From an uncultured Bacteroidia bacterium (lineage in GTDB: Bacteria; Bacteroidota; Bacteroidia; Bacteroidales; F082): a stretch of DNA of 39,989 nt. The stretch lies in NCBI GenBank assembly GCA_902802535.1, contig CADCML010000074.1, forward strand, positions 1-39,989, read 5' to 3'. The number at the start of each line of letters is the position of its first letter. Positions within the stretch are counted from its first letter, which is position 1. A model generated the notes under the pieces. That model did not search any database and was not told the DNA's origin. It saw only the letters and a program-made list of their open reading frames with translations. The position numbers were made by a program, and so were the translations under genes. Shown piece by piece: positions 71-24,194 of the stretch.

Positions 71-139
71 TTTTGGTGAATAAAATCACCAAAAATTATA
101 ATATTTGGTGAATTGAATCACCAAATTTAGTATTTTTGC
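71..139 (+). promoter_or_regulatory. Tandem palindrome pair plus -7 box ahead of ATPase gene 1
   Basis: Two perfect 9-bp-arm inverted repeats stand in tandem. The first is TTTTGGTGA (71-79) with TCACCAAAA (86-94); the second is ATTTGGTGA (103-111) with TCACCAAAT (118-126). Each has a 6-nt spacer (ATAAAA, ATTGAA) and their centres are 32 bp apart. A TATTTTTGC -7 element follows at 131-139, so the second palindrome covers the region where the -33 contact would lie. The placement suggests an operator; the binding protein is unknown and autoregulation by the ATPase is inference. Confidence 0.75.
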
Positions 140-157
140 ACGGTAAAAAAGCAAATT

Positions 158-1279
158 ATGATAGAACGAAAACTTCACAAAGTCATCAAAAACCGCTTTT
201 TCAATGGAAAAGCCATCGTGCTTATAGGGGCACGACAGGTGGGGAAAACCACATTGCTGCACGAACTGACGAATAGAACAAATGACGTTTTATGGCTCAA
301 TGGCGATGAACTCGCCACAAGGACTTTATTGCAGGAAGTGTCGGTGGAGAAATTTCGCAGTTTGATAGGGTCAAAAACAATCCTAATTGTGGATGAAGCC
401 CAACGAATAGAGAATATCGGCTTGAAAATGAAGTTGATAACCGATAATCTGCCGAATGTTCAACTCATCCTTACCGGAAGTTCATCTTTCGAACTTGCCA
501 ATCGTGTCAATGAGCCTTTGACGGGACGAAAATGGGAATACACCTTGTTTCCGCTCTCTTTCGCCGAAATGGCCGAGCACACAAATGCTTTCGAGGAAAT
601 CAAACACTTGCCGCTTCGTTTGGTCTATGGCTACTACCCTGATGTCGTCACGCACCCTGGCGACGAAAAAGAAGTCCTTAAACAAATCACAGACAGTTAC
701 TTGTACAAAGACATCCTCGAATGGGAGCGCGTCAAAAAGTCTGACAAATTGGTCAAGTTATTACAATCGTTGGCTTTTCAGGTGGGAAGCGAGGTGTCAC
801 TGAACGAATTGGGGCAACAAGTTGACTTGGACAAAAACACCGTGGAGAAATACATCGTCTTGTTGGAACAAGCCCAAGTCATTTTCAGACTTGGTTCATT
901 GAGCCGCAATCTCCGCAATGAGTTAAAGACCGCGCGTAAAATCTATTTCTACGACAACGGTGTCCGCAACGCCCTCATTAACAATTTCAACGACCTTGCG
1001 CTTCGCGACGACACAGGGGCATTGTGGGAAAACTGGATGATCAGCGAATTGGTCAAGAAAAGGGCATACGACCGTCAATTTGTCAACCGTTATTTTTGGC
1101 GAACCACACAGCAACAGGAAATCGACTACATTGAGGAAGCCGATGGACGTTTCACTGCATACGAATTCAAATGGAATCCGAAGAAGAAGGCCAAAACAAG
1201 TCAAAGTTTCCTGAAAGCCTATCCCAATACGGAAATCATGACCGTCAACCCGGATAATTTCTATACACTGCTCTTATAG
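158..1279 (+). CDS. AAA family ATPase with C-terminal DUF4143 domain (ATPase 1)
   Basis: This 373-residue protein has the AAA_14/DUF4143 architecture. The Walker A motif GARQVGKTT lies at about residues 24-32, Walker B (ILIVDEAQ) ends at D79-E80, and a sensor-like LTGSSS follows near 106. A winged-helix-like stretch (SLNELGQQVDLDKNTVEKYI) occupies roughly 214-233. The C-terminus has the arrangement E321-I-D323 then E336-F-K338, which fits the PD-(D/E)XK nuclease-like fold of DUF4143. Biochemical function is not established for this family. The gene stands alone, with its own promoter and two tandem palindromes. It is a close relative of the gene at 11372-12397 and has an intact C-terminus where that one is cut. 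The ATG at 158 lies 19 nt after the -7 box, so the leader is short. Confidence 0.88.
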   Translation: MIERKLHKVIKNRFFNGKAIVLIGARQVGKTTLLHELTNRTNDVLWLNGDELATRTLLQEVSVEKFRSLIGSKTILIVDEAQRIENIGLKMKLITDNLPNVQLILTGSSSFELANRVNEPLTGRKWEYTLFPLSFAEMAEHTNAFEEIKHLPLRLVYGYYPDVVTHPGDEKEVLKQITDSYLYKDILEWERVKKSDKLVKLLQSLAFQVGSEVSLNELGQQVDLDKNTVEKYIVLLEQAQVIFRLGSLSRNLRNELKTARKIYFYDNGVRNALINNFNDLALRDDTGALWENWMISELVKKRAYDRQFVNRYFWRTTQQQEIDYIEEADGRFTAYEFKWNPKKKAKTSQSFLKAYPNTEIMTVNPDNFYTLLL

Positions 1280-1340
1280 TGTTTTGTCTGTACTGGAAAG
1301 GAGATATGCAAAATGATGCGTATTTTTCACGAAAATACGG

Positions 1341-3434
1341 TTATTCCACCACAACCTTCCGCGTTTCGCCGCCCAAGGTCACAAAATACAATCCTTGCGG
1401 CAATTTCACCTTTTCCTTGCCTTTGATTTCTTTGGTCAGAATGATTTGCCCGAGGGCGTTGGTTACGGTCATAATGCCTGTACCTTCTATCATTATGTAA
1501 TCCTTGGCCGGGTTGGGGTAAATCTTAAAGATGCTTCTATGGTTTTCACAAAGTTGGTCATAGGGCATCGTGCAAAACACCGCTTCGGGACTCGCGGGAG
1601 AGGCGTAATGCGTTGATGTTTCCTTTTTGTGTTGCGTGAAGGTGTAAGAAGTATTAGGAACCAAGCCTTCAAATAAAGTGGAATTTTGCCATTCTCTGCC
1701 ATCAATATTGTATTCGCAACCTTCTATGGCAACAAGAGTGATGCTTGTTTCAGTATTGCTTTCCATCTGCGGGGCTTCAGGAATGGCTTGTTCCGCCTTT
1801 TTGACAGGGCCTACAAGAGGTGAAATCACAGCTCCCACACAATTCTCGGCGGCGACTTGTACGCAAATGTTCTCGTCAATATCGTCTTCAGTCAAAGTAT
1901 ACGTCTGGAAAACAGCACCTTCAATGGCTGTTGTATCTCTACGCCATTGATAGCTCAATTCGCCCAATTCAGGAATTGATGGTATTGCGGTCAAATCAGT
2001 GATTGCGGTTAAGATTTGTCCGAAAACAGGTTCGCCGTCAATCTTGACCTCGCCAATCAAAGTAGGTGTGATGGCACCGTTTAATGCGTTTTCTATTGCC
2101 CCGTATGCGTTCAGTCTTCTCCCCTCAGCTACCAAACCATCGAGAGAAGGCAGGTGGTCGGCACCATCAAAGAGGGATTGTTTCACTGAAAGACAGAAAC
2201 TTGCGGGGTCACTTTTGCAAACCTGCATCATTTCCTCTGGCAAGGCAGCATACATCAACGCTATGGTTCCAGAAACTTGTGGAGTGGCCATTGAGGTTCC
2301 AGTCAAATTACCGTAGCTGTTGTTGGGCGTTGTGGAATAGATGCTTGTGCCTGGTGCTCCAATGTCGATGTTTTCGATGCCATAACCCGCACTACCGTAC
2401 TTCACATCAGCAGAAGTAGTATTGGTGATGCCAATCAGATAATCCCCAGGACAGGCTGACGGAACATCGCCTACCACATCGACATTTACATTCATGTTCG
2501 GGCCGGCACCGCAACTCAATATGCCGACATTGCCCATCTCGTCGTACATTGAGCACCAGATGGGATAATCGTCGGGATTGCCGTAATCGACACCAAAAGA
2601 AGAATTGGTAGACACGATGAAAGCGCCTTCCTCGCCGTTGGTTTCATTGTATCGCGCCCGCATTTCCAAAGCGTAGGAATAGGCCTCCACGACTATGGAC
2701 TCATTGCCCGAACTACCGCAAATGGGCAAAACTTTCACATTCCAATTCACTCCGCAAATGCCTTTTCCGTTGTCGCCGACCGCCCCGATGATGCCCGAAA
2801 CATGGGTGCCGTGGTTGCTGCTACCGACATAGCCGTTGTGGTTGTATGCATTCCAGCCGTGATAGTCATCGATATAGCCATTGCCATCGTCGTCGATTCC
2901 ATTATTGGGAATTTCGTTGGCGTTTTCCCAGCAATTCAGGTCTTCATGGGTCCAATCGGTACCACTATCGATGACAGCCACGACTATGGTGTCACCCGTT
3001 GCCGTGACACCACCCGTGGTGAACTCTTCCCAAGCCTGCGGTAGGCTCATAATGTCCGGTGCCCACTGCATACTATAATAGGGATCATCAGGAATCGCTT
3101 CACGCAGTACAATGTTGGTATGGTTGTTCTGAATGACCCGCACATCGGCATTTTTGTTCAAGCGATGCATTTTTTCTGCTCTCGGCTCTTTATTGTCGGT
3201 TATTTCGAAAAGCCAGATATTCAGCCTTTTGGAAAGTTGTCTTTTAGGCACAATTCCAACATTGGCATTGGCGGCAAAAGTCGAGGCATCCACATCTTGC
3301 TCCAACCAAATAATGAATTCGTTCTCTACATAAGTTGAGTTTTCGGTCTTGGTGTTTTGTTCCTGAGCGTAGGAAAACAAGGACAAAAACACCATCGTCA
3401 AAACGATTGCTGATTTGATGATTGATGGTTTCAT
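1341..3434 (-). CDS. Secreted S8 (subtilisin-like) serine protease with T9SS type A sorting domain
   Basis: A 697-residue secreted protease. A signal peptide spans residues 1 to about 23 (ends SYAQ). The S8 catalytic triad is visible: D156 in VAVIDSG, H208 in NHGTHVSG, S381 in GTSMATP. An Asp/Asn-rich segment (IDDDGNGYIDD, about 180-190) resembles the calcium-site insert of Bacteroidota subtilases. A linker with an Ig-like segment (about 465-560) leads to the C-terminal sorting domain, which starts at IYPNPAKDY and carries the GLYFV motif. This domain sends the protein through type IX secretion for surface attachment or release. The gene starts 23 nt after hicA on the same strand with no obvious promoter of its own, so read-through from the toxin-antitoxin promoter is likely. 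Confidence 0.92.
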   Translation of the reverse strand: MKPSIIKSAIVLTMVFLSLFSYAQEQNTKTENSTYVENEFIIWLEQDVDASTFAANANVGIVPKRQLSKRLNIWLFEITDNKEPRAEKMHRLNKNADVRVIQNNHTNIVLREAIPDDPYYSMQWAPDIMSLPQAWEEFTTGGVTATGDTIVVAVIDSGTDWTHEDLNCWENANEIPNNGIDDDGNGYIDDYHGWNAYNHNGYVGSSNHGTHVSGIIGAVGDNGKGICGVNWNVKVLPICGSSGNESIVVEAYSYALEMRARYNETNGEEGAFIVSTNSSFGVDYGNPDDYPIWCSMYDEMGNVGILSCGAGPNMNVNVDVVGDVPSACPGDYLIGITNTTSADVKYGSAGYGIENIDIGAPGTSIYSTTPNNSYGNLTGTSMATPQVSGTIALMYAALPEEMMQVCKSDPASFCLSVKQSLFDGADHLPSLDGLVAEGRRLNAYGAIENALNGAITPTLIGEVKIDGEPVFGQILTAITDLTAIPSIPELGELSYQWRRDTTAIEGAVFQTYTLTEDDIDENICVQVAAENCVGAVISPLVGPVKKAEQAIPEAPQMESNTETSITLVAIEGCEYNIDGREWQNSTLFEGLVPNTSYTFTQHKKETSTHYASPASPEAVFCTMPYDQLCENHRSIFKIYPNPAKDYIMIEGTGIMTVTNALGQIILTKEIKGKEKVKLPQGLYFVTLGGETRKVVVE

Positions 3435-3457
3435 AATGATGTTGTTTTAGGCATAAA

Positions 3458-3649
3458 TTATTCAATTCCCGCCTGTTTCAAAATAGCCATAAAAGTTTCT
3501 TTCTTCAAGTCCTTTCCATTATGATAAGGCACGATGATGATCTTGTTGTTAATCGGATTATAATACACTTGATGTGATCCTTTTGCCCTCTTGAAAACAT
3601 AGCCATTTTCTTCAAGCAACTGAATCAAGTATTTGGAACTCAGGTTCAT
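3458..3649 (-). CDS. hicA: HicA-type mRNA interferase toxin
   Basis: A 63-residue protein of normal HicA length with the KGSHQVY core. H26 is the catalytic histidine expected of this double-stranded-RNA-binding-fold ribonuclease. HicA toxins cleave mRNA on the ribosome or free until neutralised by HicB. The start codon overlaps the last 4 nt of hicB (ATGA type overlap), so the pair is translationally coupled. Gene order is antitoxin first, the reverse of the classical E. coli hicAB order but common in Bacteroidota. Family assignment is firm; activity is inferred. Confidence 0.88.
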   Translation of the reverse strand: MNLSSKYLIQLLEENGYVFKRAKGSHQVYYNPINNKIIIVPYHNGKDLKKETFMAILKQAGIE

Positions 3650-3873
3650 ACAGCCATCAAATTCAGTGAATACTCCAACACATTGCTATCATCAGGAACA
3701 TATTCACCCCTATCCTGCAATTCCTCTATATAAAGCTCTATGGCTTCCTTAGCCATATCAATGGCCTCATCGACGGTTTCCCCGTATGTAATGCAACCCG
3801 GCAAGGAAGGCACAAACACCGTATATCCCCCTTCCTCCTCTTTCCTTAGGTTGATTTTGTAAGTTCTATTCAT
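3646..3873 (-). CDS. hicB: HicB-type antitoxin (short form, no evident DNA-binding tail)
   Basis: A 75-residue protein with the degraded RNase H-like HicB fold: GGYTVFVPSLPGCITYG followed by ETVDEAIDMAKEAIELYI. This is the HicB partner that binds and blocks HicA. No C-terminal helix-turn-helix or ribbon-helix-helix extension is present, since the protein ends about 20 residues after the fold. Direct operator binding by this protein is therefore doubtful. It leads the hicB-hicA pair and has a TATTTTTGC promoter 25 nt upstream. Confidence 0.87.
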   Translation of the reverse strand: MNRTYKINLRKEEEGGYTVFVPSLPGCITYGETVDEAIDMAKEAIELYIEELQDRGEYVPDDSNVLEYSLNLMAV

Positions 3874-3897
3874 AACTTAGCCTTGTTGTTTTCATTT

Positions 3898-3906
3898 GCA
3901 AAAATA
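3898..3906 (-). promoter_or_regulatory. -7 element for hicBA (and probably the S8 protease)
   Basis: TATTTTTGC on the minus strand, 25 nt before the hicB ATG, matches the Bacteroidota TAnnTTTG consensus. It is the only clear promoter upstream of hicB, hicA and the protease gene. Confidence 0.6.
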
Positions 3907-3948
3907 GCAAAAAACTTGAAACCGATAGTTTTCCGCATCGTTTTTTCA

Positions 3949-4794
3949 TTAAAACGCCACCTCAATCCATTGCCCATCCTTGAAATTCACCACACTGCGA
4001 TACCCCGCCTTCTTCAAGGCTTCCTCGGCGGCAGCAAACTCCAATGAAATTTCACTGAAATGGTGCGCATCAGCAGAAATGATGGCGGGAACGCCCATCT
4101 TGCAAGCTTCCTCCATCAGCCAAGGGGAAGGATAAAAGCCGTTGTAGCGTTTCTTGTAGATACCGCGTGTGTTGATTTCCATTACCAAGCCTTTTTCTCG
4201 GATGAGGTCGAGGGTTTCAAGGGCAAGTTTACGATACCAAGGCTCGTCCTCATGGAAATATCTTTCGCGGTTGTGCATCTTGATTTTGTCGAAGTGGGCG
4301 ATGATGTCAAACTGCTCGTTTTCAATCATCTCGTTCGATTGTTCGTAGAATCGGCGCACGGCGCGATGGATGTCGCTGTCAAAGAATTTTTGCAGACCTT
4401 CATCGTAAACTTCCCATTTCGGGCCGTCGATGAACCAGATTTCATCGGGATTGGCTGACTGCCCGACCAAATGTACACCACCAATCAGATAATCAAGGTG
4501 ATAGCGTTCTTTAGTCACGGCGAAAGGCTCGGAAACGCCAGTTAGATAGTCTGCTTCCAAACCGCAATACAAGTCAATTTTTCCCTTGAATTCTTCTTTC
4601 AGTTGGGCGATTTCGGCCACATAACGCGGCATGTCGGCCTCTTTGACGGAGAAATTGTTGTCGAAAGGCAAAGGGCTATGCTCCGAAAAGCCCAATGTCG
4701 TCAAGCCCTGACGGACAGCCTCTTCCACGATTTCGCGGGGCTGCGACTTGCCGTCGGAATAAATGCTATGGGTATGTAGGTTGAAGTTTTGCAT
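3949..4794 (-). CDS. PHP-domain histidinol-phosphatase family protein
   Basis: The PHP metal-dependent phosphoesterase signatures are present: HTHSIYSDG at the N-terminus, GFSEHSP, the GLEADYL segment and ADAHH near the end. This matches HisK/HisJ-type histidinol phosphatases, which hydrolyse L-histidinol phosphate in histidine synthesis. No other his gene is nearby, so another phosphoester substrate is possible. I chose the ATG at 4794 (protein begins MQNFNLHTHS, 281 residues). An upstream in-frame start at 4836 would translate a dispersed intergenic repeat and add 14 non-conserved residues. The gene follows the U32 gene on the same strand, 56 nt away. Confidence 0.82.
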   Translation of the reverse strand: MQNFNLHTHSIYSDGKSQPREIVEEAVRQGLTTLGFSEHSPLPFDNNFSVKEADMPRYVAEIAQLKEEFKGKIDLYCGLEADYLTGVSEPFAVTKERYHLDYLIGGVHLVGQSANPDEIWFIDGPKWEVYDEGLQKFFDSDIHRAVRRFYEQSNEMIENEQFDIIAHFDKIKMHNRERYFHEDEPWYRKLALETLDLIREKGLVMEINTRGIYKKRYNGFYPSPWLMEEACKMGVPAIISADAHHFSEISLEFAAAEEALKKAGYRSVVNFKDGQWIEVAF

Positions 4795-4810
4795 AATCAA
4801 AATTTTTCTT

Positions 4811-4845: not shown

Positions 4846-4850
4846 GCGTG

Positions 4851-6086: not shown

Positions 6087-6096
6087 AGGCATTATG

Positions 6097-6124: not shown

Positions 6125-6133
6125 GTGACAAAG

Positions 6134-6207: not shown

Positions 6208-6221
6208 AACCGTTTTGCGCC

Positions 6222-6230: not shown

Positions 6231-6281
6231 CATATTTTTTTGATATGGTGTGCAATTTGTTATCCAGTTTTTTCTCTCTGC

Positions 6282-9159: not shown

Positions 9160-10827
9160 TTAATCGTTGTTGTTTGCTTTTCTTGGTCTGTGCCTTCTCG
9201 GCTGTTCCTCTTGAATCTCGGTTTCTGTTTCTGCAGGAGTTTCCGTTATCGTTTCTTCAGGCGTGGCTTCGGGTGCAGATTGCGGCATTCCGGTCTCAAT
9301 GCGGCGGAAGATGTCGTCCTTGTCCTTGGGGCGAGCCTCCTCGTGCCACTTGAAGCCTTGCAGGTAACGATTGCTTTCGCTTAAATCAGTTTCAGGATAC
9401 ATGGTTTCCGAAATGGCCTTGAACGATTTGATGATAGAAACGCTCTGGTTCTCCATCTCGATAACCATCGTTTCAGAGTTTGACACATCGATGCCGATAA
9501 GTCCGCCCTCATCGTCACGAATCCAATAAATTGTCTCGGCCTTTTCACCGTCCACATTGACGTGATGGATGTCGCCCTCCTTGAAATGCGAGGTAATGTC
9601 CGTGCCTTTGATTTGGTTGAAACCCTCAATGGTATCTTGTGAAATGATGAAAGCATTGCCTTTTTGCAGCACCCATTCCACTGAGTTTTCCTTGACTTTG
9701 ATATCGATATCGGTGCCCGTCATTTGGCTGTCCTCGGCCCAAAGAATCGGTTCCACGCGCATTCGTATGATGGAATCTTCCACCAAATAGGTGAGCGTGT
9801 CGCATTTGCCCTGCAAGTCCGACTTGAAGAAGCGCACGTTGCGGCGGGCGATGAGTTTCTTGGCTTCTTCCTTCTGCTTGTCGAAATACATGAACAGCGT
9901 GTCGCCGTGGATGTAAAGCGAATCGCCGCCGTCGTAACTGATGGCATAAGCGCTGTCGGTAGCAAAAGAAAGGCCTTTATTCTCCCACATCTCCGCATAA
10001 TCGCCGCGCATGATGATTTTGTACGAAGTGTCGATCATATCCACCTGGCTGTAGGCCTGAGCCAAGCCTATATTACGATCATAGAAAATGGAATCAGAAC
10101 GTATCTGCTGGTTTTCGTTGTACATGAAAGGCCGTTCGTCGAGGTACACAAAATCCTCATCGACAAGATAATAGCCGTGTGTCCCTTCCAAAACGTTCTC
10201 CTTATTGATGATGGTGGTCGGACCTTCGAACCACATCTTCTCGATGTCCGTGTTATAATATAAAGTATCAGTGTACATCTGATATTTCGGGCTGGTCACT
10301 TCCACCTTCTCGAAAAACGAAAACTCCTTGAGGTCGTCGCGGTAATAGCCAATGCAACTGATGAGAGTCTTATCGCCTCGATAGGTGGTCGCGCTGTCGG
10401 GATAACATGCCAGATGCAAGTTGCGGTCATAAGTGAGGTATTCGGTGAGCAAGGTCGTGGAGTCGTCCATCAGTTTCACATTATCGAAAAACTCGGCAAA
10501 GCGCGTATTGCCATCATAATCAAGCAAGTCGCTGAAGATTTCTACGCTATCGTTGACGATGATGTGCACATTCTGAAAAGCGTTGAAACTATTGGTTTTC
10601 TCGAAGAAATAGGCCGAGTCGCAGAAGAAATAGGCCGAATCGTGACGCATCTTCACATGACCAATGAGCCGTTGCATGTCGCCCATGCTTTTGGAGAACG
10701 TGGCCACATCATAATGCTCGATATGGATGCGGGTTTTCTTGCGTTGCACGGTGTCTTGCTCCTGAGCCACAACGATTTGCGACAACAGAAGGAATAACGA
10801 CGCTATGAGCAACAATTTGGCTTTCAT
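9160..10827 (-). CDS. OstA-like (LptA/LptD N-terminal domain family) exported protein
   Basis: A 555-residue protein with a signal peptide of about 21 residues (ends VVAQ). The body is a run of beta-taco-type repeats rich in DSAYFF, YDGNTRFAEFF and DTLYYNTD motifs, as in the OstA/LptA fold. It lacks the C-terminal barrel of LptD. The tail is rich in P/E/T and ends in basic residues (RRHRPRKA). Bacteroidota proteins of this type are generally called OstA-like and are inferred to act in lipopolysaccharide transport across the periplasm. No lpt partner is adjacent here. It leads an apparent two-gene operon with gpmA. Confidence 0.82.
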   Translation of the reverse strand: MKAKLLLIASLFLLLSQIVVAQEQDTVQRKKTRIHIEHYDVATFSKSMGDMQRLIGHVKMRHDSAYFFCDSAYFFEKTNSFNAFQNVHIIVNDSVEIFSDLLDYDGNTRFAEFFDNVKLMDDSTTLLTEYLTYDRNLHLACYPDSATTYRGDKTLISCIGYYRDDLKEFSFFEKVEVTSPKYQMYTDTLYYNTDIEKMWFEGPTTIINKENVLEGTHGYYLVDEDFVYLDERPFMYNENQQIRSDSIFYDRNIGLAQAYSQVDMIDTSYKIIMRGDYAEMWENKGLSFATDSAYAISYDGGDSLYIHGDTLFMYFDKQKEEAKKLIARRNVRFFKSDLQGKCDTLTYLVEDSIIRMRVEPILWAEDSQMTGTDIDIKVKENSVEWVLQKGNAFIISQDTIEGFNQIKGTDITSHFKEGDIHHVNVDGEKAETIYWIRDDEGGLIGIDVSNSETMVIEMENQSVSIIKSFKAISETMYPETDLSESNRYLQGFKWHEEARPKDKDDIFRRIETGMPQSAPEATPEETITETPAETETEIQEEQPRRHRPRKANNND

Positions 10828-10843
10828 TACTTCAATTAATGCC

Positions 10844-10852
10844 GCAAAATTA
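10844..10852 (-). promoter_or_regulatory. -7 element for the OstA-like gene and gpmA
   Basis: TAATTTTGC on the minus strand, 17 nt before the OstA-like ATG, in the 94-bp divergent gap shared with the first MazG gene. Confidence 0.55.
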
Positions 10853-10921
10853 AGATTATTGTCTGAATTGAGCCAACGAAACGAAAAATCAACTAATTTT
10901 ACCCCATCAAACCAACGAAAA

Positions 10922-11251
10922 ATGACGATAAAGGAAGCCCAGAACGCCGTCGATGAATGGATTAAGACTTACGGCGTGAGATATTTCAACGAACTGACCA
11001 ACATGGCCTTGCTGACTGAGGAAGTCGGCGAATTGGCCCGCATCATCGCCCGCACATACGGCGAGCAATCCTTCAAGGAATCGGACAAGAACCGCGACCT
11101 TGGCGACGAAATGGCCGACATCCTTTGGGTGCTGATTTGCCTTGCCAACCAAACCGGCGTTGACCTCACCGATGCTTTTGCCAAGAATATGGAGAAAAAG
11201 ACACAGCGGGATAGGGAGCGGCATTTGAGGAATGAGAAGTTGATGGCATGA
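10922..11251 (+). CDS. MazG-like nucleotide pyrophosphohydrolase, copy 1
   Basis: A 109-residue all-alpha NTP pyrophosphohydrolase. The metal-binding pattern is E34-x2-E37 (TEEVGEL) and E63-x2-D66 (DEMADI). Such proteins hydrolyse (d)NTPs to monophosphates plus pyrophosphate and serve as house-cleaning enzymes. I chose the ATG at 10922, because the longer frame from 10805 has 39 residues with no conservation in copy 2. Copy 2 at 12601-12930 differs at 11 of 109 residues (about 90% identity) and starts at the same residue. The two copies bracket ATPase gene 2. Confidence 0.87.
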   Translation: MTIKEAQNAVDEWIKTYGVRYFNELTNMALLTEEVGELARIIARTYGEQSFKESDKNRDLGDEMADILWVLICLANQTGVDLTDAFAKNMEKKTQRDRERHLRNEKLMA

Positions 11252-11281
11252 ATCAAGTTGGGTTTTCTCTGCCATTTATTT

Positions 11282-11340
11282 TAAAATCTTCAATGAAATG
11301 AAGAAATTCGATTGAAAATCTTCAATTGAATGAAGATTTT
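11282..11340 (+). repeat. 59-bp direct repeat, 5' copy (operator palindromes of ATPase 2)
   Basis: This copy matches 12395-12453 at 58 of 59 positions. It holds two palindromes: TCTTCA/TGAAGA (11287-11292, 11299-11304) and AAAATCTTCA/TGAAGATTTT (11315-11324, 11331-11340). Spacers are ATGAAA and ATTGAA, and centres are 32 bp apart. The geometry equals that at 71-126, but the arm sequence differs. Confidence 0.9.
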
Positions 11341-11342
11341 TG

Positions 11343-11371: not shown

Positions 11372-12397
11372 ATGATACAAAGAGCATTGAAAGAAGTGAT
11401 TGGGACTTCCATGCAACCGAACAAGGTGATGTTGGTGTTTGGAGCAAGAAGAGTTGGCAAAACAGTGTTAATCAAGCAATTGATTGAACAATTCAAAGGC
11501 AAGGTTCTTTTTCTGAACGGAGAAGATGCCCTGACAGAAGAGATGTTTAGCACTCGAACAGCCTCACATTATCGCCAACTTTTGAGCGGAACAAACCTGC
11601 TCGTCATTGATGAGGCGCAAAGTATCCCTGACATTGGCAAGATTCTGAAACTCATTGTGGACGAGGTGGAAGGTATCCGTGTGTTGGTTTCGGGTTCTTC
11701 TTCTTTCGATTTGCGCAACCAGACCGGTGAGCCTTTGGTAGGGCGTTCCACCACTTTCCGTCTTTCCTCTTTGTCGGTGGGTGAGTTGCTTTCGCAACAG
11801 CCAGTGGCGCAACTGCTGCTTGATTTGGACGAACACCTTGTTTACGGCGGTTATCCCGAACTGCTTTCCATTCCAGATTTCGAGCGTAAGCAGGTCTATC
11901 TTTCGGAACTGGCGCAGTCGTATCTGCTGAAAGACATCCTCACCTTAGACGGCATCAAAAACTCTGGAAAGATGTTCAATTTGCTTCGGTTGGTAGCCTT
12001 TCAAATGGGTAGCGAAGTGTCGTATGAAGAATTGGGGCGGCAGTTGGCGTTGAGCCGCAACACAGTTGAGAAATACTTGGATTTGCTGACCAAAACCTTC
12101 GTCATTTACCGGCTTCCGGCCTTTTCTAATAATCCAAGAAAGGAAGTCAGCAAGGCGGGCAAATGGTATTTCTACGACAATGGTATCCGCAATGCCATCA
12201 TCGGCGACTTCCGCCCGCTTGCGCTCAGGCAGGATGTTGGCGCTCTTTGGGAGAATTTCCTGATTTCGGAACGTATAAAGATGAATGACAACCTGCATCA
12301 TCGGGCGGAGTATTATTTCTGGCGCACCTATTCCGGGCAGGAGATTGACCTGATTGAAGAGCGCAACGGCGAAGTAAAAGCCTTTGAAAAAATCTAA
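11372..12397 (+). CDS. AAA family ATPase, DUF4143 type, C-terminally truncated (ATPase 2)
   Basis: A 341-residue paralog of ATPase 1. Walker A GARRVGKT is at about 24-31, Walker B (LLVIDEAQ) ends near residues 80-81, VSGSSSFDLRN follows, and the C-terminal segment YFWRTYSGQEIDLIEE holds the first half of the nuclease-like motif. It then ends at KAFEKI, whereas ATPase 1 continues through YEFKW for 38 more residues. The stop codon TAA is the first three bases of the downstream 59-bp repeat, so truncation follows from the repeat junction. Loss of the E-x-K part should disable any PD-(D/E)XK activity while leaving the ATPase intact. I chose the ATG at 11372 (MIQRALKEV, aligning with MIERKLHKV). 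An earlier ATG at 11330 lies inside the operator palindrome. Confidence 0.85.
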   Translation: MIQRALKEVIGTSMQPNKVMLVFGARRVGKTVLIKQLIEQFKGKVLFLNGEDALTEEMFSTRTASHYRQLLSGTNLLVIDEAQSIPDIGKILKLIVDEVEGIRVLVSGSSSFDLRNQTGEPLVGRSTTFRLSSLSVGELLSQQPVAQLLLDLDEHLVYGGYPELLSIPDFERKQVYLSELAQSYLLKDILTLDGIKNSGKMFNLLRLVAFQMGSEVSYEELGRQLALSRNTVEKYLDLLTKTFVIYRLPAFSNNPRKEVSKAGKWYFYDNGIRNAIIGDFRPLALRQDVGALWENFLISERIKMNDNLHHRAEYYFWRTYSGQEIDLIEERNGEVKAFEKI

Positions 12398-12453
12398 AAT
12401 CTTCAATGAAATGAAGAAATTCGATTGAAAATCTTCAATGGAATGAAGATTTT
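12395..12453 (+). repeat. 59-bp direct repeat, 3' copy
   Basis: Second copy of 11282-11340 with one mismatch in the second spacer (ATGGAA instead of ATTGAA). Both palindromes are kept. It lies 1,113 bp from the first copy and supplies the stop codon of ATPase 2. No TATTTTTGC box follows it, so it is an operator copy without its promoter. Confidence 0.9.
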
Positions 12454-12600
12454 ACACCGTATTATCGGCAGGGGTTTACACCGCCTACCTGATGTGCTGT
12501 CACACTTACGGGGTTCCCCAGTGTGCCGCCAAAGTCCTGAAAGGACGACCCTAACACAAGCAGGCGACGACAGTCCCTGCTCGCAACGGAGAACATCATC
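12454..12600. repeat. Intergenic palindromic repeat element, member A
   Basis: Non-coding 147 bp. Shared features with 13692-13842 are an initial CAGGGG, CTGTCAC, GGGGTTCCC, the small hairpin AGTCCTGAAAGGACGA and AAGCAGGCG. It looks like a diverged member of the same dispersed element family and fills the gap between the 59-bp repeat and MazG copy 2. Confidence 0.55.
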
Positions 12601-12930
12601 ATGACCATAAAAGAAGCCCAAACCGCCGTTGACGAATGGATTAAGACTTACGGCGTGCGTTATTTCAGCGAACTGACCAATATGGCCTTGCTGACCGAGG
12701 AAGTCGGCGAATTGGCCCGCATCATCGCCCGCACCTACGGCGAGCAATCGTTCAAAGAATCGGACAAAAACCGCAATATGGCCGATGAAATGGCCGACAT
12801 TCTTTGGGTGTTGCTCTGTTTAGCCAACCAGACTGGCGTGGACCTTACTGAAGCCTTTGCTAAGAACATGGAGAAGAAGACTTTGCGTGATAGGGAGAGG
12901 CATATACATAATGAGAAATTGATGTCGTAA
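12601..12930 (+). CDS. MazG-like nucleotide pyrophosphohydrolase, copy 2
   Basis: A 109-residue paralog of 10922-11251, with 98 identical residues and the same E-x2-E and E-x2-D metal motifs (TEEVGEL, DEMADI). It is predicted to hydrolyse nucleoside triphosphates to monophosphates. Substitutions cluster at the NRDLGD/NRNMAD turn and near the C-terminus, so the fold and active site look intact. Upstream sequence differs completely from copy 1 (a palindromic repeat element rather than a divergent promoter gap), and no clear -7 box is seen. Either copy could be the ancestral one. Confidence 0.87.
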   Translation: MTIKEAQTAVDEWIKTYGVRYFSELTNMALLTEEVGELARIIARTYGEQSFKESDKNRNMADEMADILWVLLCLANQTGVDLTEAFAKNMEKKTLRDRERHIHNEKLMS

Positions 12931-13020: not shown

Positions 13021-13329
13021 ATGAGCACAAAAAACATGATAAAAGTCATTGCCGATTATCTCAGGACTCAGCCCGTTCTGAAAGCATGGCTTTTTGGCTC
13101 ATACGCACGAGGCGAACAGACTTCGCAGAGCGACGTGGATATTCTTTTTGTGCCTGACAAGTCGCAACATTTCAGCCTTTTCACATTGGGTGGCATGTAT
13201 GAAGACTTGAAAGACCTTTTGGGTTGTGAGGTAGATTTAATCACCGTCGGAGGTCTATTGCCTTTCGCGAAAGAAAGTGCCGACCGCGACAAAATATTAA
13301 TCTATGAGAGAACCGAGCAAAGATCCTAA
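13021..13329 (+). CDS. mntA: MntA-type minimal nucleotidyltransferase antitoxin
   Basis: A 102-residue protein with a perfect GS-x10-DxD active site: G26-S27 in FGSYARGE and D38-V-D40. This is the minimal nucleotidyltransferase (MNT) fold. In characterised HepT-MntA systems MntA neutralises the HEPN toxin by adding AMP units to its active-site tyrosine. It overlaps the following hepT gene by 26 nt in another frame, which implies coupled translation. The ATG at 13021 lies 26 nt after the -7 box. Confidence 0.9.
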   Translation: MSTKNMIKVIADYLRTQPVLKAWLFGSYARGEQTSQSDVDILFVPDKSQHFSLFTLGGMYEDLKDLLGCEVDLITVGGLLPFAKESADRDKILIYERTEQRS

Positions 13330-13663
13330 ACGCCTAACCGATATTTTAGAGGCCATTGATACCATTTTCCAATACGTAGGAAATGATGACATGGATGCTT
13401 TTGTGGCAGACCGTATGCGTTATCATGCTGTGGTTTACAACATTATGATTATCGGTGAGGCTGCCAATATGCTAACCTTGGAATTTAGAGAGAATCATCC
13501 AGAAACACCTTGGAGACAAATTACAGGCATGAGAAACTTCCTCATACACGGTTATCATCAAGTGGAAAAAGACATTGTTTGGAAAGTGATTGAAGAAGAT
13601 TTACTTTTGCTGCGCCCACAAATTGTGGGTTACTTGGCTGCTTTTGGTGTTTCAGCACAATAA
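13304..13663 (+). CDS. hepT: HepT-type HEPN (DUF86) ribonuclease toxin
   Basis: A 119-residue all-alpha HEPN protein with the R-x4-H-x-Y motif R77-NFLI-H82-G-Y84. This motif is the RNase active site, and its Tyr is the AMPylation target in characterised HepT proteins. FVADRMRYHAVVYNIMIIGEA is the conserved DUF86 helix before it. It pairs with mntA immediately upstream (26-nt overlap). The toxin is expected to cleave RNA when unmodified. All key residues are present, so the module looks functional. Confidence 0.9.
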   Translation: MREPSKDPKRLTDILEAIDTIFQYVGNDDMDAFVADRMRYHAVVYNIMIIGEAANMLTLEFRENHPETPWRQITGMRNFLIHGYHQVEKDIVWKVIEEDLLLLRPQIVGYLAAFGVSAQ

Positions 13664-19520: not shown

Positions 19521-19546
19521 TGGTCTATTCGTTATAAAACACATCA

Positions 19547-20356
19547 TCAAAATTGGAATATCGGTTCGCCAGCCTTGCGCTTTCTGGCCTTTTGCATCAA
19601 AGCACCTCTTTCTTGGGGCTCGAAGATGCCCACCTTACGCATATCGGCGCGCTCCCACCAGTTGGGCTTGTATTCGTGAATGAACCGATACAGCGAATCA
19701 CTGGCCGTCAGCACATGGGCATCGTAATCCTCAGTAGCATCCGAAACGGTCTCGAATTCAATGTGAAGAATCTGATTGACAGGGTTGTACTCGTAGGTGA
19801 ACTCATAATAAACGGCCGTGTCGTTGTGGCGGTCGCGCTGCACGCCTTTGCCGTCTTCAAGGAAATACATCAGGTAGCCCTTCGTGGTGTCGTAAGGGTC
19901 ATAAATCCTGTGTTTGTAGGATTCCTCGATGATTTGGCCATAAAAGTCCGTATTCCAGTGCTCCAAACTCATGACTCCGAAGATTTTGTTGATCATGCCG
20001 TCGAAATCGAGCTTATTTTGCGAGACAAAGATGGTACGGTAAACGTGTCCGCCAGGCGACAGGATGACAAACGACGCGCCACGGTAATCGGCATCGCCTA
20101 AAGCCTTGACGGTGACGGTGATGGTAGCATCATTTTCACCGCTCATCGTGCTTATCGTGTACCAATCGGCTTCTTCATTTTGCCTGATGGTCCATTTGCA
20201 GTTTGCGGTCAGCTCAATGGTCTGTGTACCAGCATCCAAGCCAAACCAAAGGTTTTGGGTGGAAACACGCAAGGTGTACTCTTTCGCGCAACCCACAAGA
20301 GTCGCTACAATCACGGCCAACAGGGCCATCATCACTAAAATGCTTCTTTTCTTCAT
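19547..20356 (-). CDS. BACON-domain lipoprotein, paralog A
   Basis: A 269-residue paralog of the following gene with lipobox LVGC, a BACON domain (CKWTIRQNEEADWYTIS, then SPGGHVYRTIFVSQNK) and the same C-terminal module ending RADMRKVGIFEP...KARKRKAGEPIF. I chose the ATG at 20356 (MKKRSILVMM), because the frame to 20392 adds residues ahead of the signal peptide. It leads the four-gene unit behind a TACTTTTGC promoter. Duplication of both the lipoprotein and the membrane protein suggests that each lipoprotein may pair with one membrane paralog; that is inference. Confidence 0.8.
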   Translation of the reverse strand: MKKRSILVMMALLAVIVATLVGCAKEYTLRVSTQNLWFGLDAGTQTIELTANCKWTIRQNEEADWYTISTMSGENDATITVTVKALGDADYRGASFVILSPGGHVYRTIFVSQNKLDFDGMINKIFGVMSLEHWNTDFYGQIIEESYKHRIYDPYDTTKGYLMYFLEDGKGVQRDRHNDTAVYYEFTYEYNPVNQILHIEFETVSDATEDYDAHVLTASDSLYRFIHEYKPNWWERADMRKVGIFEPQERGALMQKARKRKAGEPIFQF

Positions 20357-20378
20357 TTTCGTTCGTTTTAAAATCGAT

Positions 20379-20387
20379 GCAAAAGTA
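20379..20387 (-). promoter_or_regulatory. -7 element for the BACON/membrane-protein operon
   Basis: TACTTTTGC on the minus strand, 22 nt before the first lipoprotein ATG. No other clear promoter lies before 15883. Confidence 0.6.
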
Positions 20388-20418
20388 AACAATTTTATTT
20401 ATGGGAGGCTGATTCCTA

Positions 20419-22614
20419 TCAACGTTTCTTGCGTTTTGCCTTCTTGGGCAGCGTGTCGGCCAGCATCTCGAAGTCCATCTTGTGTTTGAAAAGGTCGACG
20501 GCCTTCACGCGGATGCGCACTTCGTCGCCCAATTGGATGACGCGACCTGTTTCCTGACCGATGACGCGGAAATTGTCGTCGTCCAAATAGTAATAGTCGC
20601 CGGGGAGGTCTTCGTAGCGTACCAAACCCTCGCATTTGTTGCCTTTCAGCTCGACAAACAGGCCCCATTTGCTGACACCTGACACCAAGCCTTCGAATAC
20701 CTGACCAATCTTATCTTGCAGGTATTCAGCTTGTTTGTACTTAATGGATTGGCGTTCCATTTCCTCGGCTTGCTTTTCCATTTCGCTGGAGTGTTCGCAC
20801 ATCTCTTCGTATTCCTTCTTGTTGACCGAGCCTTGGCCTTCAATGAGATACCTTTCTATCAGTCGGTGAACCATCAGGTCGGGATAGCGGCGGATGGGCG
20901 AGGTGAAATGGGTGTAGTAGTCGAAAGCCAAGCCGTAGTGTCCGATGTTGTCGGTCGAATAGACGGCCTTGGCCATGGTACGCACCGCCACCGTCTCGAT
21001 GAGGTTCTTCTCGCCTTTGCCCTCCACATCCTCGAAGAGTTTGTTGTAGGAACGCACCAATTTGTCACGGCTACTGAGATCCATGGTGTAGCCCAAGCGC
21101 GAAATCAGCAACATGAATTTGTTGAGTTTCTCGGGATTAGGTTCATCGTGGATACGGTAAACGAAAGTATTGTTGTGCCATTTGCTTTCAGGTTTGCCGA
21201 AGGTTTCGGCCACAGTGCGGTTGGCCAACAGCATGAAGTCCTCAATGAGCTCATGCGACTCGTTCTGCACGCGCACGTAGGTATCGATAGGTTTCTTGTT
21301 CTCGTCGAGGATGAAACGCACCTCCTCCGAGTGGAAATTGATGCTGCCTGCCGCCATGCGTTGCTCGCGGAGTTTGGTGGCCAAGCTGTTGAAAGTCAGG
21401 ATTTCATCTTTGTAGTCGCCCTCACCGCCTTCAATCATGGTTTGCACCTCCTCGTAAGTATAACGGCGGCACGATTTGATGATGGTCTTGCCAATCCAAT
21501 GGTCGTAAATCTTGGCATCGTCGTCCATTTCGAAGACGACCGAGAAAGTCAGCTTTTCCTCGTTGGGACGCAGCGAGCAGACGTTGTTGCAGAGTTTTTC
21601 AGGCAACATGGGAATGGTGCGGTCGACAAGGTAAACCGAAGTGCCGCGGTCGAGAGCCTCTTGGTCGATAGCAGAGCCTTTCTTCACATAGTGCGACACA
21701 TCGGCGATGTGGACGCCCAGTTCCCAATGACCGTTGGGCAGTTTCTGCAAACTGATGGCGTCGTCGAAGTCCTTGGCGTCGACTGGGTCGATGGTGACGG
21801 TGAACACCTTGCGGAAGTCGCGGCGCTTCTTGATTTCGTCCCTACCAATTGTGATGGGAATCCTATCTGCTTCTTTTTCAACTTCTTCTGGGAACTCTAT
21901 CGGGTATTCATGGGCGGCCAAAATGCTTTCCATTTCGACATCGTTCTCGCCAGGCTTACCGAGCACGCGGACAATCTCTCCAAAAGGATTGCCCGAGCCG
22001 TCGGGCCAATCGACGAGATGAACTATGACTTTCATGCCGTCTTTTGCACCGTTGAGGTCGCCGCGTGGGATGAAAATGTCCACCGGCATCCAGTCGACAT
22101 CGGGACGAACGAAGACATAGCCATGGGAGATGGTGAGCACGCCCACAAACTCGGTGTGGCGGCGTTCCAATATTTCCACAATCTCGCCTTCGGGCTTGCT
22201 GTTGTTGCGCTTCGGGAACATGGCCACGCGCACGCGGTCGCCATGCAGTGCCTTGTAGGTGTCCTGGGCCGCGATGAAGATGTCCTCGCCTTCGCCGTCG
22301 TCGCGCACCACGTATGCCTTGCCCGTCGACTTCATCTCCACGGTACCCTCCACATACTTCGTCTTAGGCCCGAACTGCGCCATGCCTTCGGGACTCATCA
22401 CATAACTGTAAGGCCTCGCTTCTTGCAACAAGCCTTTGTCTTTCAATTCGACAAGGAGCTTATACACCACATCTTTCCCAGCCTGGTCCTTGATGCCCAT
22501 GATTTTGCAGACCTGCTTGTAGTTCTTCGGTCGGAAAGGCTGGTCGGCAAAGATGCCCAGTATCACGCTGGTGAAGGTGCTCAGTTTGTTTTCTATTTTT
22601 TTCTTTTTTGGCAT
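20419..22614 (-). CDS. rnr: Ribonuclease R
   Basis: A 731-residue RNase II/R family 3'-5' exoribonuclease. The N-terminal winged-helix and cold-shock domains are followed by the RNB catalytic core. Its metal-binding run is DPVDAKDFDDAISL, with YLVDRTIPMLPEKLCN and the late FTSPIRRYPDLMVHR. A C-terminal S1 domain (FEGLVSGVSKWGLFVEL) ends in a lysine/arginine tail (KKAKRKKR) typical of RNase R. It degrades structured RNA, including defective rRNA and mRNA. The gene lies 28 nt after ATPase 3 on the same strand, so some expression may come from that gene's palindrome-bearing promoter. Confidence 0.96.
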   Translation of the reverse strand: MPKKKKIENKLSTFTSVILGIFADQPFRPKNYKQVCKIMGIKDQAGKDVVYKLLVELKDKGLLQEARPYSYVMSPEGMAQFGPKTKYVEGTVEMKSTGKAYVVRDDGEGEDIFIAAQDTYKALHGDRVRVAMFPKRNNSKPEGEIVEILERRHTEFVGVLTISHGYVFVRPDVDWMPVDIFIPRGDLNGAKDGMKVIVHLVDWPDGSGNPFGEIVRVLGKPGENDVEMESILAAHEYPIEFPEEVEKEADRIPITIGRDEIKKRRDFRKVFTVTIDPVDAKDFDDAISLQKLPNGHWELGVHIADVSHYVKKGSAIDQEALDRGTSVYLVDRTIPMLPEKLCNNVCSLRPNEEKLTFSVVFEMDDDAKIYDHWIGKTIIKSCRRYTYEEVQTMIEGGEGDYKDEILTFNSLATKLREQRMAAGSINFHSEEVRFILDENKKPIDTYVRVQNESHELIEDFMLLANRTVAETFGKPESKWHNNTFVYRIHDEPNPEKLNKFMLLISRLGYTMDLSSRDKLVRSYNKLFEDVEGKGEKNLIETVAVRTMAKAVYSTDNIGHYGLAFDYYTHFTSPIRRYPDLMVHRLIERYLIEGQGSVNKKEYEEMCEHSSEMEKQAEEMERQSIKYKQAEYLQDKIGQVFEGLVSGVSKWGLFVELKGNKCEGLVRYEDLPGDYYYLDDDNFRVIGQETGRVIQLGDEVRIRVKAVDLFKHKMDFEMLADTLPKKAKRKKR

Positions 22615-22642
22615 ATTGTTTTGAATTTGGGGTTTCTATATT

Positions 22643-24064
22643 CTATTCAAACAGGTCAGCCAAGGTGAGCTTGAAAGCCATTTCCGAGGCATAGCTGTTT
22701 TCAGTGGTTCCGTTGGTGGTAATCAGCGTTGGAAAAATGCCGCATTGGGTGCCCGTCTGCTCAACAAAGGTCGTCCAACGCACCCTGATGTTGTCGGCTT
22801 CCTCCTTATCCAAAAGGTATTGGCCTTCGCTGTATTTGATTTCACAGACATTTATCATCCTATCGGCGCGTTCAATGATGAGGTCAATTTGCGTTTTTGT
22901 CTCTTTCGACTTGCTACGCCAAGAATAATATTCCGTGCCGATGCCGTCGATTTTGAGCGCCTTCTTGATTTGCGGAATATGCGCCATGCAAAGTCGCTCG
23001 AAGGCGTGACCATACCATGTGTTGAGGATGGGTGTGCCAAGATGGTGCTGCCAATACTGTCCATTCTCAAATTGCTTTGCGGCAAAAGTGAGGTGGAACA
23101 AGGTGAAGAAGTCGATGAGTTGAAAAATGCTGCCTGTTGATTTGATTTTCTTCTCGCGGACATAATAACGTCGGATGATGTCGCAGTTTTCAAGGTCTTC
23201 CAATTGCTCTGTGAGATGTCCGTTGTCAGCCACGCCCAAATTCTCTGCCAATTCGACCCGCGTCAAGCCCGACTTATTGTCGGCCAGTTGGCTGATGATT
23301 TGCAGATAAGGGTTCTCGTTATCGAACAACGACTTATAGAGCATTTCGTATTCGGCAACCAATTCCCCTTTGCGGCTGAAGCAAAGCCTGTCGATGTTTT
23401 GCGCAAGGCTTTCGTCGTTGCGCAGCAGGCTGAGATAATAGGGCACGCCACCGAAAGTCATGTAGGTTTGGGCAATCATCAGGCGTGTCCAGCGGAAGCC
23501 GTTGGCTTTCAGGTAGGCTTCCGTTTCTTTCAGGGTGAATGGAGCAAGGTGCATGGTGTGGGTGAGCCGTCCGTAAAGCCCGCCACGGTTATTGATGATG
23601 TTGCGCACCATCCATGAGGTCGCACTGCCACAAACGATGAGTTTCACTTCATCGTGAAGCGAGCACCATGTGTTCCAAAACTGTCCCAAGGCACGGACGA
23701 AAGCACCACCTTTTCGGTCGAAGCAAGGTAGCTCGTCTATGAAGATGACACAAGGTTTGCCTCGGCGCAACTTGCTTGTCAGCAGGTCTTCCAAAGCAAA
23801 GAACATTTCCAACCAACTCTTGCCGATAGGTTTTTCATAGCCATGGTCGCGCAAAGCAATTTGAAATGCAGCCATCTGTTCCGACTTTTTGCCGTAAAGC
23901 AAGCCTGAAACGGAAAATGTCAGTTGGTCGTGCAACAGTTGGTTCACCAAAAAGGTCTTGCCAACGCGCCGTCGCCCGTAGAGACCTATGAACTCAGGTC
24001 GGTTGGAGCTAATGTATTCGCGCAACAGCACAGCTTCTTCTTTTCTTCCAATCAAGGTAGCCAT
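22643..24064 (-). CDS. AAA family ATPase, archaeal-ATPase/DUF234 type (ATPase 3)
   Basis: A 473-residue protein. Walker A YGRRRVGKT is at about 29-37, Walker B is VIFIDELPCFD, and VCGSATSWM is the sensor-like segment. A winged-helix-like region (TRVELAENLGVADNGHLTEQL) comes next. The DUF234-type C-terminus with YSWRSK, QIDLII and CEIKYSE gives a PD-(D/E)XK-like D...ExK arrangement. It belongs to a different family from ATPases 1 and 2 but has the same overall plan: ATPase, winged helix, nuclease-fold tail. I chose the ATG at 24064 (MATLIGRKEE). The frame continues open to 24226, but that stretch is the two operator palindromes and the promoter. Function is unknown. Confidence 0.85.
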   Translation of the reverse strand: MATLIGRKEEAVLLREYISSNRPEFIGLYGRRRVGKTFLVNQLLHDQLTFSVSGLLYGKKSEQMAAFQIALRDHGYEKPIGKSWLEMFFALEDLLTSKLRRGKPCVIFIDELPCFDRKGGAFVRALGQFWNTWCSLHDEVKLIVCGSATSWMVRNIINNRGGLYGRLTHTMHLAPFTLKETEAYLKANGFRWTRLMIAQTYMTFGGVPYYLSLLRNDESLAQNIDRLCFSRKGELVAEYEMLYKSLFDNENPYLQIISQLADNKSGLTRVELAENLGVADNGHLTEQLEDLENCDIIRRYYVREKKIKSTGSIFQLIDFFTLFHLTFAAKQFENGQYWQHHLGTPILNTWYGHAFERLCMAHIPQIKKALKIDGIGTEYYSWRSKSKETKTQIDLIIERADRMINVCEIKYSEGQYLLDKEEADNIRVRWTTFVEQTGTQCGIFPTLITTNGTTENSYASEMAFKLTLADLFE

Positions 24065-24082
24065 AACGATTATTTTTTCGCT

Positions 24083-24194
24083 GCAAAGATAAAAAATTTC
24101 GGGCGGAATCGATGATTTTTTCTTCAATTCCGCCCAAATTTTATGAAAATCCGGGCGGAATCGATGATTTTTTGTTCGATTCCGCCCGGATTTT
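24083..24194 (-). promoter_or_regulatory. Tandem long palindromes plus -7 box ahead of ATPase gene 3
   Basis: The -7 element TATCTTTGC (minus strand, 24083-24091) is followed upstream by two palindromes. The proximal one has 9-bp arms GGGCGGAAT (24101-24109) and ATTCCGCCC (24127-24135). The distal one has perfect 19-bp arms (24146-24164 and 24176-24194) with the same GGGCGGAATC core. Centres are about 52 bp apart. The architecture repeats that of ATPases 1 and 2 with a different sequence. Confidence 0.75.

What the first reader, a model, noticed from the sequence alone, without database searches (positions are those of the whole stretch)
71..24194. Three scattered ATPase genes each carry a private pair of tandem palindromes at the promoter
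Seen in the sequence: ATPase 1 (71-126), ATPase 2 (11287-11340) and ATPase 3 (24101-24194) are each preceded, against the -7 box, by two tandem inverted repeats. Arm sequences differ (GGTGA, CTTCA, GGGCGGAAT), but genes 1 and 2 share 6-nt A/T-rich spacers and exactly 32 bp between centres. All three proteins combine an AAA ATPase, a winged-helix-like segment and a PD-(D/E)XK-fold tail (DUF4143 or DUF234). Known family data give no agreed function. Inference: each ATPase recognises its own palindrome pair, either as an autorepressor or as the recognition site of a selfish or defence-like ATPase-nuclease unit. I do not know of a description of this coupling.
Basis: partly seen in the sequence, partly recalled or inferred. 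Interest (0 to 1): 0.82.

Follow-up and report, generated by a model that had tools for sequence, protein, structure and literature searches.

The report
ATPase genes reading private DNA tags
Many related ATPase-nuclease genes of gut and environmental bacteria each appear to recognise their own private pair of DNA sites at their own promoter, and some sit between two copies of that site and can vanish leaving the site behind, which suggests self-controlled mobile or defence units of unknown function.

Summary
In the window's genome the best paired-repeat spacing is 32/33 bp before 32 of 55 ATPase genes versus 15 of 263 controls; in 80 relatives of gene 1 it is exactly 32 bp in 65, versus 7 of 264 neighbouring genes; the gene-3 family uses 51-54 bp in 16 of 26. 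Site sequence follows the ATPase's own recognition helix: residue 227 tracks half-site base 5 (Asn-T 24/25, Lys/His-G 22/22, Glu/Gln/Asp-C 17/18), is the best of 327 columns on a tree, and was right for 25 of 29 new genes after filters set once the list was seen (unfiltered 36 of 62). So each ATPase very probably binds its own site; its overlap with the promoter suggests autorepression. New: some genes have a second site copy at the stop codon (own genome 1 of 31, gene-3 family 10 of 22), and sister genomes keep a solo site without the gene. The proteins match untested phage-defence candidates PDC-S01/S27. Seven of seven distant homologues lack a clear site pair. Role and mobility agent are inferred.

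The parts
72..125 (+). Gene 1 site pair (OP): two 22-bp palindromes, centres 32 bp apart, just upstream of TATTTTTG
   Evidence: no other copy with fewer than 2 mismatches in the genome apart from a 99-bp contig overlap
158..1279 (+). Gene 1: AAA_14 - winged helix - PD-(D/E)XK-like ATPase (DUF4143; PADLOC PDC-S01)
833..871 (+). Gene 1 recognition helix, residues 226-238; residue 227 = codon 836-838
   Evidence: helix in AlphaFold2 model; covariation
1013..1246 (+). Gene 1 nuclease-like domain, residues 286-363, with E291, D323, E336, K338 invariant in 47 aligned relatives
11280..11341 (+). Gene 2 left OP: CTTCA palindrome pair, 32 bp apart, next to the promoter -7 box
11372..12397 (+). Gene 2: DUF4143 ATPase (PDC-S01); its 3' end lacks about 109 bp that the copy in genome G359 has
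12395..12454 (+). Gene 2 right OP: second direct copy of the site pair, containing the stop codon of the shortened gene
22643..24064 (-). Gene 3: ATPase_2/AAA with DUF234-like tail (PDC-S27); start taken as MATLIGRKEE
24102..24186 (-). Gene 3 OP: two 33-bp palindromes, centres 52 bp apart, next to TATCTTTG
10805..11251 (+). mazG copy left of the gene 2 unit (insertion neighbourhood)
12589..12930 (+). second, N-terminally shortened mazG copy right of the gene 2 unit

Best explanation
Each of these ATPase genes is a self-recognising single-gene unit. Shown by comparison: the gene carries at its promoter a private tandem site (OP) at a spacing typical of its subfamily (32 bp, about 3 turns, for gene 1/2 types; 32-33 bp direct repeats for several longer forms; about 52 bp, 5 turns, for the gene 3 type), and in the gene 1/2 type site bases 4, 5 and 6 track residues 225, 227 and 226 of the protein's own recognition helix. 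Inferred: the protein binds its own OP, probably as dimers on each palindrome, and represses its own promoter; private sites keep co-resident paralogues apart. Shown in two families: the gene can lie between two direct OP copies, and sister genomes hold the same locus with one solo OP and no gene. Inferred: the unit is gained or lost as a cassette at OP. What triggers the ATPase-nuclease is unknown; phage defence is so far a bioinformatic proposal.
For: Spacing: 32 of 55 against 15 of 263; direct repeats 31 of 55 against 0 of 263; 65 of 80 against 7 of 264; gene 3 family 16 of 26 at 51-54 bp. Code, 74 non-redundant genes: residue 227 with base 5, excess information 1.31 bits, z 24; residue 225 with base 4, z 20; residue 226 with base 6, z 9.7. 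On a tree built without the helix, residue 227 is the best of 327 columns for T, G and C; independent pairs: G/Lys 7 of 7 the same way (sign test p 0.016), T/Asn 5.4 of 7 same and 0 opposite (median p 0.06). New genes: 25 of 29 right, 0 of 100,000 permutations as good. Structure: residues 226-238 are the second helix of a helix-turn-helix followed by a wing. Position: of 57 relatives with a clear pair, 50 have TAnnTTTG within 80 bp of the start, and in 49 of these the site overlaps the box or lies within 40 bp upstream. Privacy: under the patterns used, the window genome has the gene 1, 2 and 3 sites only beside their own genes at fewer than 2 mismatches, apart from a contig overlap. Cassette: second OP near the stop codon in 3 of 57, 1 of 31, 2 of 17, 1 of 25 and 10 of 22 genes of five sets; solo OPs in G018, G366 (gene 2) and G012, G022 (gene 3).
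Against: 11 of 80 gene 1 relatives score below 18 at spacing 31-33, and 24 of 55 own-genome genes have no 32/33 direct repeat scoring 18 (a few of these use other spacings). Seven of seven distant plasmid homologues (26-29% identity) have no pair scoring 22; two of them have their best spacing at 31 or 32 with chance-level scores of 18.3 and 18.7. Looser tests on new genes are weaker: 28 of 39 and 36 of 62, and the filters were chosen after I had seen the list. Part of the covariation is shared ancestry. Repression rather than activation rests on position only. A second OP is rare outside the gene 3 family, and no solo OP was found for gene 1 (15 of 15 sites lie beside a whole or partly deleted gene). 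Solo sites could come from ordinary recombination between repeats.
Confidence: 0.78

Rival explanations
1. OP-ORF-OP is an autonomous mobile element: OP copies are its ends, the AAA-wHTH-PD-(D/E)XK protein reads and cuts or joins them, and autorepression is secondary.
For: G400 and G414 hold the gene 2 unit in other contexts than the window, and homology between them runs from outer OP edge to outer OP edge (L329 against L330, 1494-2779); window gene 3 and its G018 relative share only gene plus left OP; two-OP units at near-constant distance and solo OPs; 7 of 26 other mazG loci have neither OP nor gene; 0 to 63 DUF4143 matches per draft genome in one genus; relatives on plasmids and a faecal phage contig.
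Against: No known transposase or integrase domain in the three proteins; second OP absent from most gene 1/2 relatives; window and G414 units also share about 200 bp of repeated sequence beyond the right OP, so the edge is not sharp there; several gene 1 relatives share flanks, that is, sit in one inherited locus; a solo OP is also what host recombination would leave.
Confidence: 0.33
2. Anti-phage defence gene (PDC-S01/PDC-S27) kept silent by its own DNA binding and released on infection; OP is only its operator.
For: Strong PADLOC matches (3e-165, 6.2e-140, 5.8e-176); a nucleotidyltransferase/HepT-like pair lies next to gene 2; two papers list these families among the commonest candidates (abstract and passages seen).
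Against: [quoted passage not shown] does not explain the second OP or solo OPs.
Confidence: 0.3
3. The palindromes are read by a separate host regulator common to the family.
For: Common spacing across paralogues.
Against: Arms differ from gene to gene and follow the ATPase's own recognition-helix residues.
Confidence: 0.04
4. The repeats act as RNA hairpins (attenuator or terminator).
For: They are palindromes near the start codon.
Against: The sites mostly lie upstream of the -7 box or contain it; direct-repeat versions are not hairpins.
Confidence: 0.03

Closest known systems
PADLOC phage-defence candidates PDC-S01 and PDC-S27
   Same: Same protein families by HMM; ATPase fused to a PD-(D/E)XK domain (PMC12988326, passages)
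   Different: No operator, recognition code or flanking repeat in the passages I saw; no test of their activity in those passages
Archaeal AAA+ ATPases SSO1545 (2fna) and PABY2304 (2qen); Orc1/Cdc6
   Same: Best Foldseek matches to the gene 1 model
   Different: TM-score about 0.5 at best; whether they have private promoter sites was not looked up
Autoregulated restriction-modification control proteins and toxin-antitoxin operators (recalled)
   Same: Gene-private tandem operators at the own promoter
   Different: Here the ATPase-nuclease itself carries the DNA-reading helix; no partner gene evident in the window
LTR elements with solo LTRs, and REP/RAYT units (recalled)
   Same: Repeat-gene-repeat and solo repeats; palindromic sites
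   Different: Only AAA and DUF4143/DUF234-type domains found; the repeat doubles as promoter site

Membership tests
PDC-S01 (PADLOC) | HMM match | tested here: met
   P0001 3e-165, P0002 6.2e-140
PDC-S01 (PADLOC) | anti-phage activity | not testable with these tools
   no experiment; validation pending for most PDCs per PMC12988326
PDC-S27 (PADLOC) | HMM match | tested here: met
   P0003 5.8e-176
DUF4143/AAA_14 ATPase (Pfam) | both Pfam domains over cut-off | tested here: met
   genes 1 and 2
DUF234 ATPase (Pfam) | DUF234 over cut-off | tested here: inconclusive
   gene 3 21.9 bits against cut-off 22.5
PD-(D/E)XK nuclease | conserved acidic residues and ExK | tested here: met
   gene 1 family E291, D323, E336, K338 invariant in 47; gene 3 family E356, D394, E408, K410 invariant in 20; window gene 2 lacks the ExK part. 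Nuclease activity not tested
Classical insertion sequence | transposase domain | tested here: not met
   no transposase domain at E 0.001 in Pfam for the three proteins
Classical insertion sequence | terminal inverted repeats | tested here: not met
   the second OP copy is direct in 16 of 17 cases found; OP being palindromic, orientation is weakly defined
Classical insertion sequence | target-site duplication | not tested
   junctions only printed and looked at
Self-binding transcriptional repressor | own DNA-reading residues match own operator | tested here: met
Self-binding transcriptional repressor | repression of own promoter | not testable with these tools
   only site position
Toxin-antitoxin pair | small co-transcribed partner | tested here: inconclusive
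   none obvious beside genes 1-3 in the window; relatives not surveyed

The most novel reading that the evidence does not exclude
A new class of single-gene mobile element: an AAA+ - winged-helix - PD-(D/E)XK protein flanked by two copies of the tandem site that it reads through a simple residue-to-base code, with dozens of mutually private families living in one genome, the site serving at once as operator and as end, and leaving solo sites when the gene is lost. What is counted as the fourth most common prokaryotic 'defence system' would then be, at least in part, a selfish element family.
Probability: 0.3. Interest if true: 0.95.

Novelty: new variant of a known kind. Interest (0 to 1): 0.86.

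Why it matters
PDC-S01 is reported as the fourth most common defence across prokaryotes (PMC12988326) and as the most frequent single locus in rumen genomes (PMC13356809; passages seen), with validation pending for most PDCs. A self-read private site gives a concrete handle: it predicts DNA binding of a gene 1/2-type member from its sequence, separates paralogues, offers a ready promoter assay, and makes it testable whether this large family is immune, selfish or both.

Tried and rejected
Rejected: chance or A/T-richness; a common host regulator; RNA hairpins; a wider regulon for gene 1 at fewer than 2 mismatches (the 2-mismatch places were not followed, except that two were printed). Not supported: the rule as universal for DUF4143 proteins (0 of 7 distant homologues; 12 of the 44 phage and plasmid rows listed were fetched). 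No sequence relative of gene 1 in the PDB up to E 1. Paper searches: DUF4143 with palindrom 0; DUF4143 alone 1 paper, one table row seen; COG1373/COG1672 9 papers, listing only; PDC-S01/PDC-S27 3 papers, abstract and passages of two seen, the third in the listing only; listings not on point; none. A motif meant to print the empty mazG junctions matched 0 of 7 loci, so I have no target-site consensus.

Rows dropped or set by hand: one search used 59 labelled of 80 loci, then 37 after removing near-duplicates; 13 had been dropped for low score, 1 had no readable half-site and 7 were set aside as ambiguous; the labels of 16 loci (those 7 included) were set by me from the DNA listing before the protein table was seen; automatic labels agree in 57 of 59. 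One search had 98 eligible and 74 non-redundant genes; it contains genes and is not independent of them. New-gene test: 84 genes, 51 dropped by filters; 26 upstreams from 30 loci. Control upstreams start from the first ATG of the longest ORFs, own-genome ATPase upstreams from the Walker motif.
Full report
What was checked. The three palindrome pairs are present as described. Gene 1 and gene 2 pairs have centres 32 bp apart with 6-nt spacers, gene 3 has 52 bp. Genes 1 and 2 are AAA_14 plus DUF4143 proteins; gene 3 is an ATPase_2/AAA protein with a borderline DUF234 match. The AlphaFold2 model of gene 1 (pLDDT 88.4, pTM 0.90) shows an AAA+ part, a helix-turn-helix with helices 215-222 and 226-238, two wing strands, and a tail in which E291, D323 and E336-x-K338 are invariant among 47 aligned relatives. 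The first two Foldseek matches are 2fna and 2qen, archaeal AAA+ ATPases, at TM-score about 0.5. Gene 3 was not modelled.

More than chance, and general. The window's genome (3.7 Mb draft) has 63 DUF4143 matches. For 55 Walker-motif ORFs in the fetched regions, the best spacing of a paired inverted repeat is 32 or 33 bp in 32, against 15 of 263 upstream regions of other genes. A direct-repeat scan, which also covers non-palindromic sites, finds a 32/33 bp repeat scoring 18 or more in 31 of 55 against 0 of 263. Several longer-form ATPases carry direct, non-palindromic repeats every 33 bp, some with three copies. Among 80 relatives of gene 1 from named records, mostly Bacteroidota (52-99% identity), the best spacing is exactly 32 bp in 65, against 7 of 264 neighbouring genes in the same loci; 57 of 80 against 5 of 264 score 22 or more at 31-33 bp. 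The gene-3 family has its best spacing at 51-54 bp in 16 of 26. Of 12 plasmid and phage relatives fetched, those on a Desulfosarcina plasmid (score 20.6), a Treponema plasmid (30.1), a Bacteroides uniformis plasmid (26.6) and a faecal phage contig (35.6) have the 32-bp pair; one on a B. finegoldii plasmid has only a 33-bp direct repeat; seven distant ones (26-29% identity) have no pair scoring 22.

The protein reads its own site. Half-sites were aligned from the centre outward; base 5 varies, and its labels were made from DNA alone. Of all protein columns, residue 227, the second residue of the recognition helix, carries by far the most information about base 5 (1.32 bits excess, z 14.8, 37 genes; 1.31 bits, z 24, 74 genes). 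The table is Asn-T 24 of 25, Lys-G 18 of 18, His-G 4 of 4, Glu-C 12 of 13, Gln-C 3 of 3, Asp-C 2 of 2, Gly-C 2 of 2, Ala-A 3 of 5, and single Ile-T and Leu-A cases. Neighbouring residues map to neighbouring bases: 225 to base 4 (z 20), 226 to base 6 (z 9.7). The pairings fit commonly cited amino acid-base contacts (recalled). On a tree built without the helix region, base 5 needs 24 changes, and residue 227 is the best of 327 columns for each of T, G and C by independent pairs; the pairs are few (7 on well-supported branches), so single sign tests reach only p 0.016 (G/Lys) and about 0.06 (T/Asn). Among 84 new genes, 33 passed quality filters (set after I had seen the list), 29 had a prediction, 25 were right, and none of 100,000 permutations did as well; with the repeat filter alone it is 28 of 39 and with neither quality filter 36 of 62, where many genes have no readable site in this register.

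Likely action at the promoter. Of 57 relatives with a clear pair, 50 have a TAnnTTTG box within 80 bp of the start, and in 49 of these the site overlaps the box or lies within 40 bp upstream of it. The box mostly takes a few registers relative to the proximal palindrome (about -14, +2, +16 to +18, +32), roughly one half-site step apart. Sites that include the -7 box and reach the start codon, as in Pedobacter, suit a repressor better than an activator. In the window genome the gene 1, 2 and 3 sites occur only beside their own genes under the patterns used, at fewer than 2 mismatches for gene 1, apart from a 99-bp contig overlap. Autorepression by a private operator is the best reading; it is not shown.

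Cassettes and solo sites. In the window gene 2 has a second, direct copy of its site at its stop codon, and its 3' end lacks about 109 bp present in genome G359. A second site starting -6 to +79 nt from the stop codon occurs in 3 of 57 gene 1 relatives, and in 1 of 31 own-genome genes (window gene 2), 2 of 17 gene 2 relatives, 1 of 25 further gene 1 relatives and 10 of 22 gene 3 relatives: common only in the gene 3 family. At the mazG locus where the window has site-gene-site, genome G018 has one site and no gene, with left and right flank pieces at 96 and 98% and the right copy's variant base; of the 26 other mazG loci, 7 have neither site nor gene, one is the occupied G359, and the rest could not be read across. 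In 99 genomes of the genus the gene-2 site occurs in 6: as a pair around the gene in 4, alone in 2 (G018, G366). G400 and G414 hold the unit elsewhere; homology between them runs from outer site edge to outer site edge, whereas window and G414 also share about 200 bp of repeated sequence beyond the right site. The gene-3 site occurs in 14 of 99 genomes: on both sides of the gene in 7, as a single pair in 6 (the window, G014, G012, G022, G410, G414) and as one palindrome in G367. No gene lies beside it in G012, G022 and G367; G410 and G414 are cut by contig ends. For G012 and G022 both flanks match occupied loci; in G012 the solo site matches better in the inverted sense. Gene 1's site occurs in 15 of 99 genomes, in all 15 beside the gene; one copy (G017) has an in-frame internal deletion. 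Between gene 1 relatives in different contexts homology starts within about 30 bp of the site and ends near the stop codon; several close relatives instead share flanks, that is, one inherited locus.

What is known. The proteins match PADLOC's PDC-S01 and PDC-S27. [quoted passage not shown] PMC13356809 counts 10,358 PDC-S01 loci in rumen genomes (abstract and passages). My searches of the held library brought up no paper on operators or mobility of these genes; most hits were seen as listings only.

Verdict. Own-site recognition is about as well supported as sequence alone allows for the gene 1/2 type; for the gene 3 type and the direct-repeat forms only the spacing rule was tested. Autorepression is likely. 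Presence or absence of the gene at a retained site is shown for two families; its agent is not. Function stays open between defence and selfish spread.

Noticed in passing
L355 (genome G017), about 1575-1970: A gene 1 copy with an in-frame internal deletion: site pair, promoter and start remain, but the AAA and winged-helix parts (up to about residue 247) are gone, leaving the nuclease-like tail.
   Followed up: partly
window 10805-11251 and 12589-12930: Two mazG copies flank the gene 2 unit; the other genomes of the genus with a match at this cut-off show one.
   Followed up: partly
window 13021-13663: A nucleotidyltransferase/HepT-like pair between the second mazG copy and the tRNA-synthetase gene; the seven empty mazG loci run straight past it.
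   Followed up: no
L062 upstream of the + strand ATPase: Several copies of a 22-bp direct repeat (two helical turns) over more than 110 bp before one ATPase gene.
   Followed up: no
window 1-99 and G000:C7 end (L197): The window starts with an exact 99-bp overlap to the end of contig C7, so the two contigs are probably adjacent.
   Followed up: yes
window 12455-12592; L336 downstream of the site: The right flank of the gene 2 site is a sequence that recurs beside the gene 2 unit of G414 in another context.
   Followed up: no
DUF4143 matches vary from 0 to 63 between draft genomes of one genus.
   Followed up: partly
L340 (genome G012) 1458-1624: The solo gene-3 site matches the occupied locus L263 in inverted sense between flanks in unchanged sense.
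   Followed up: no
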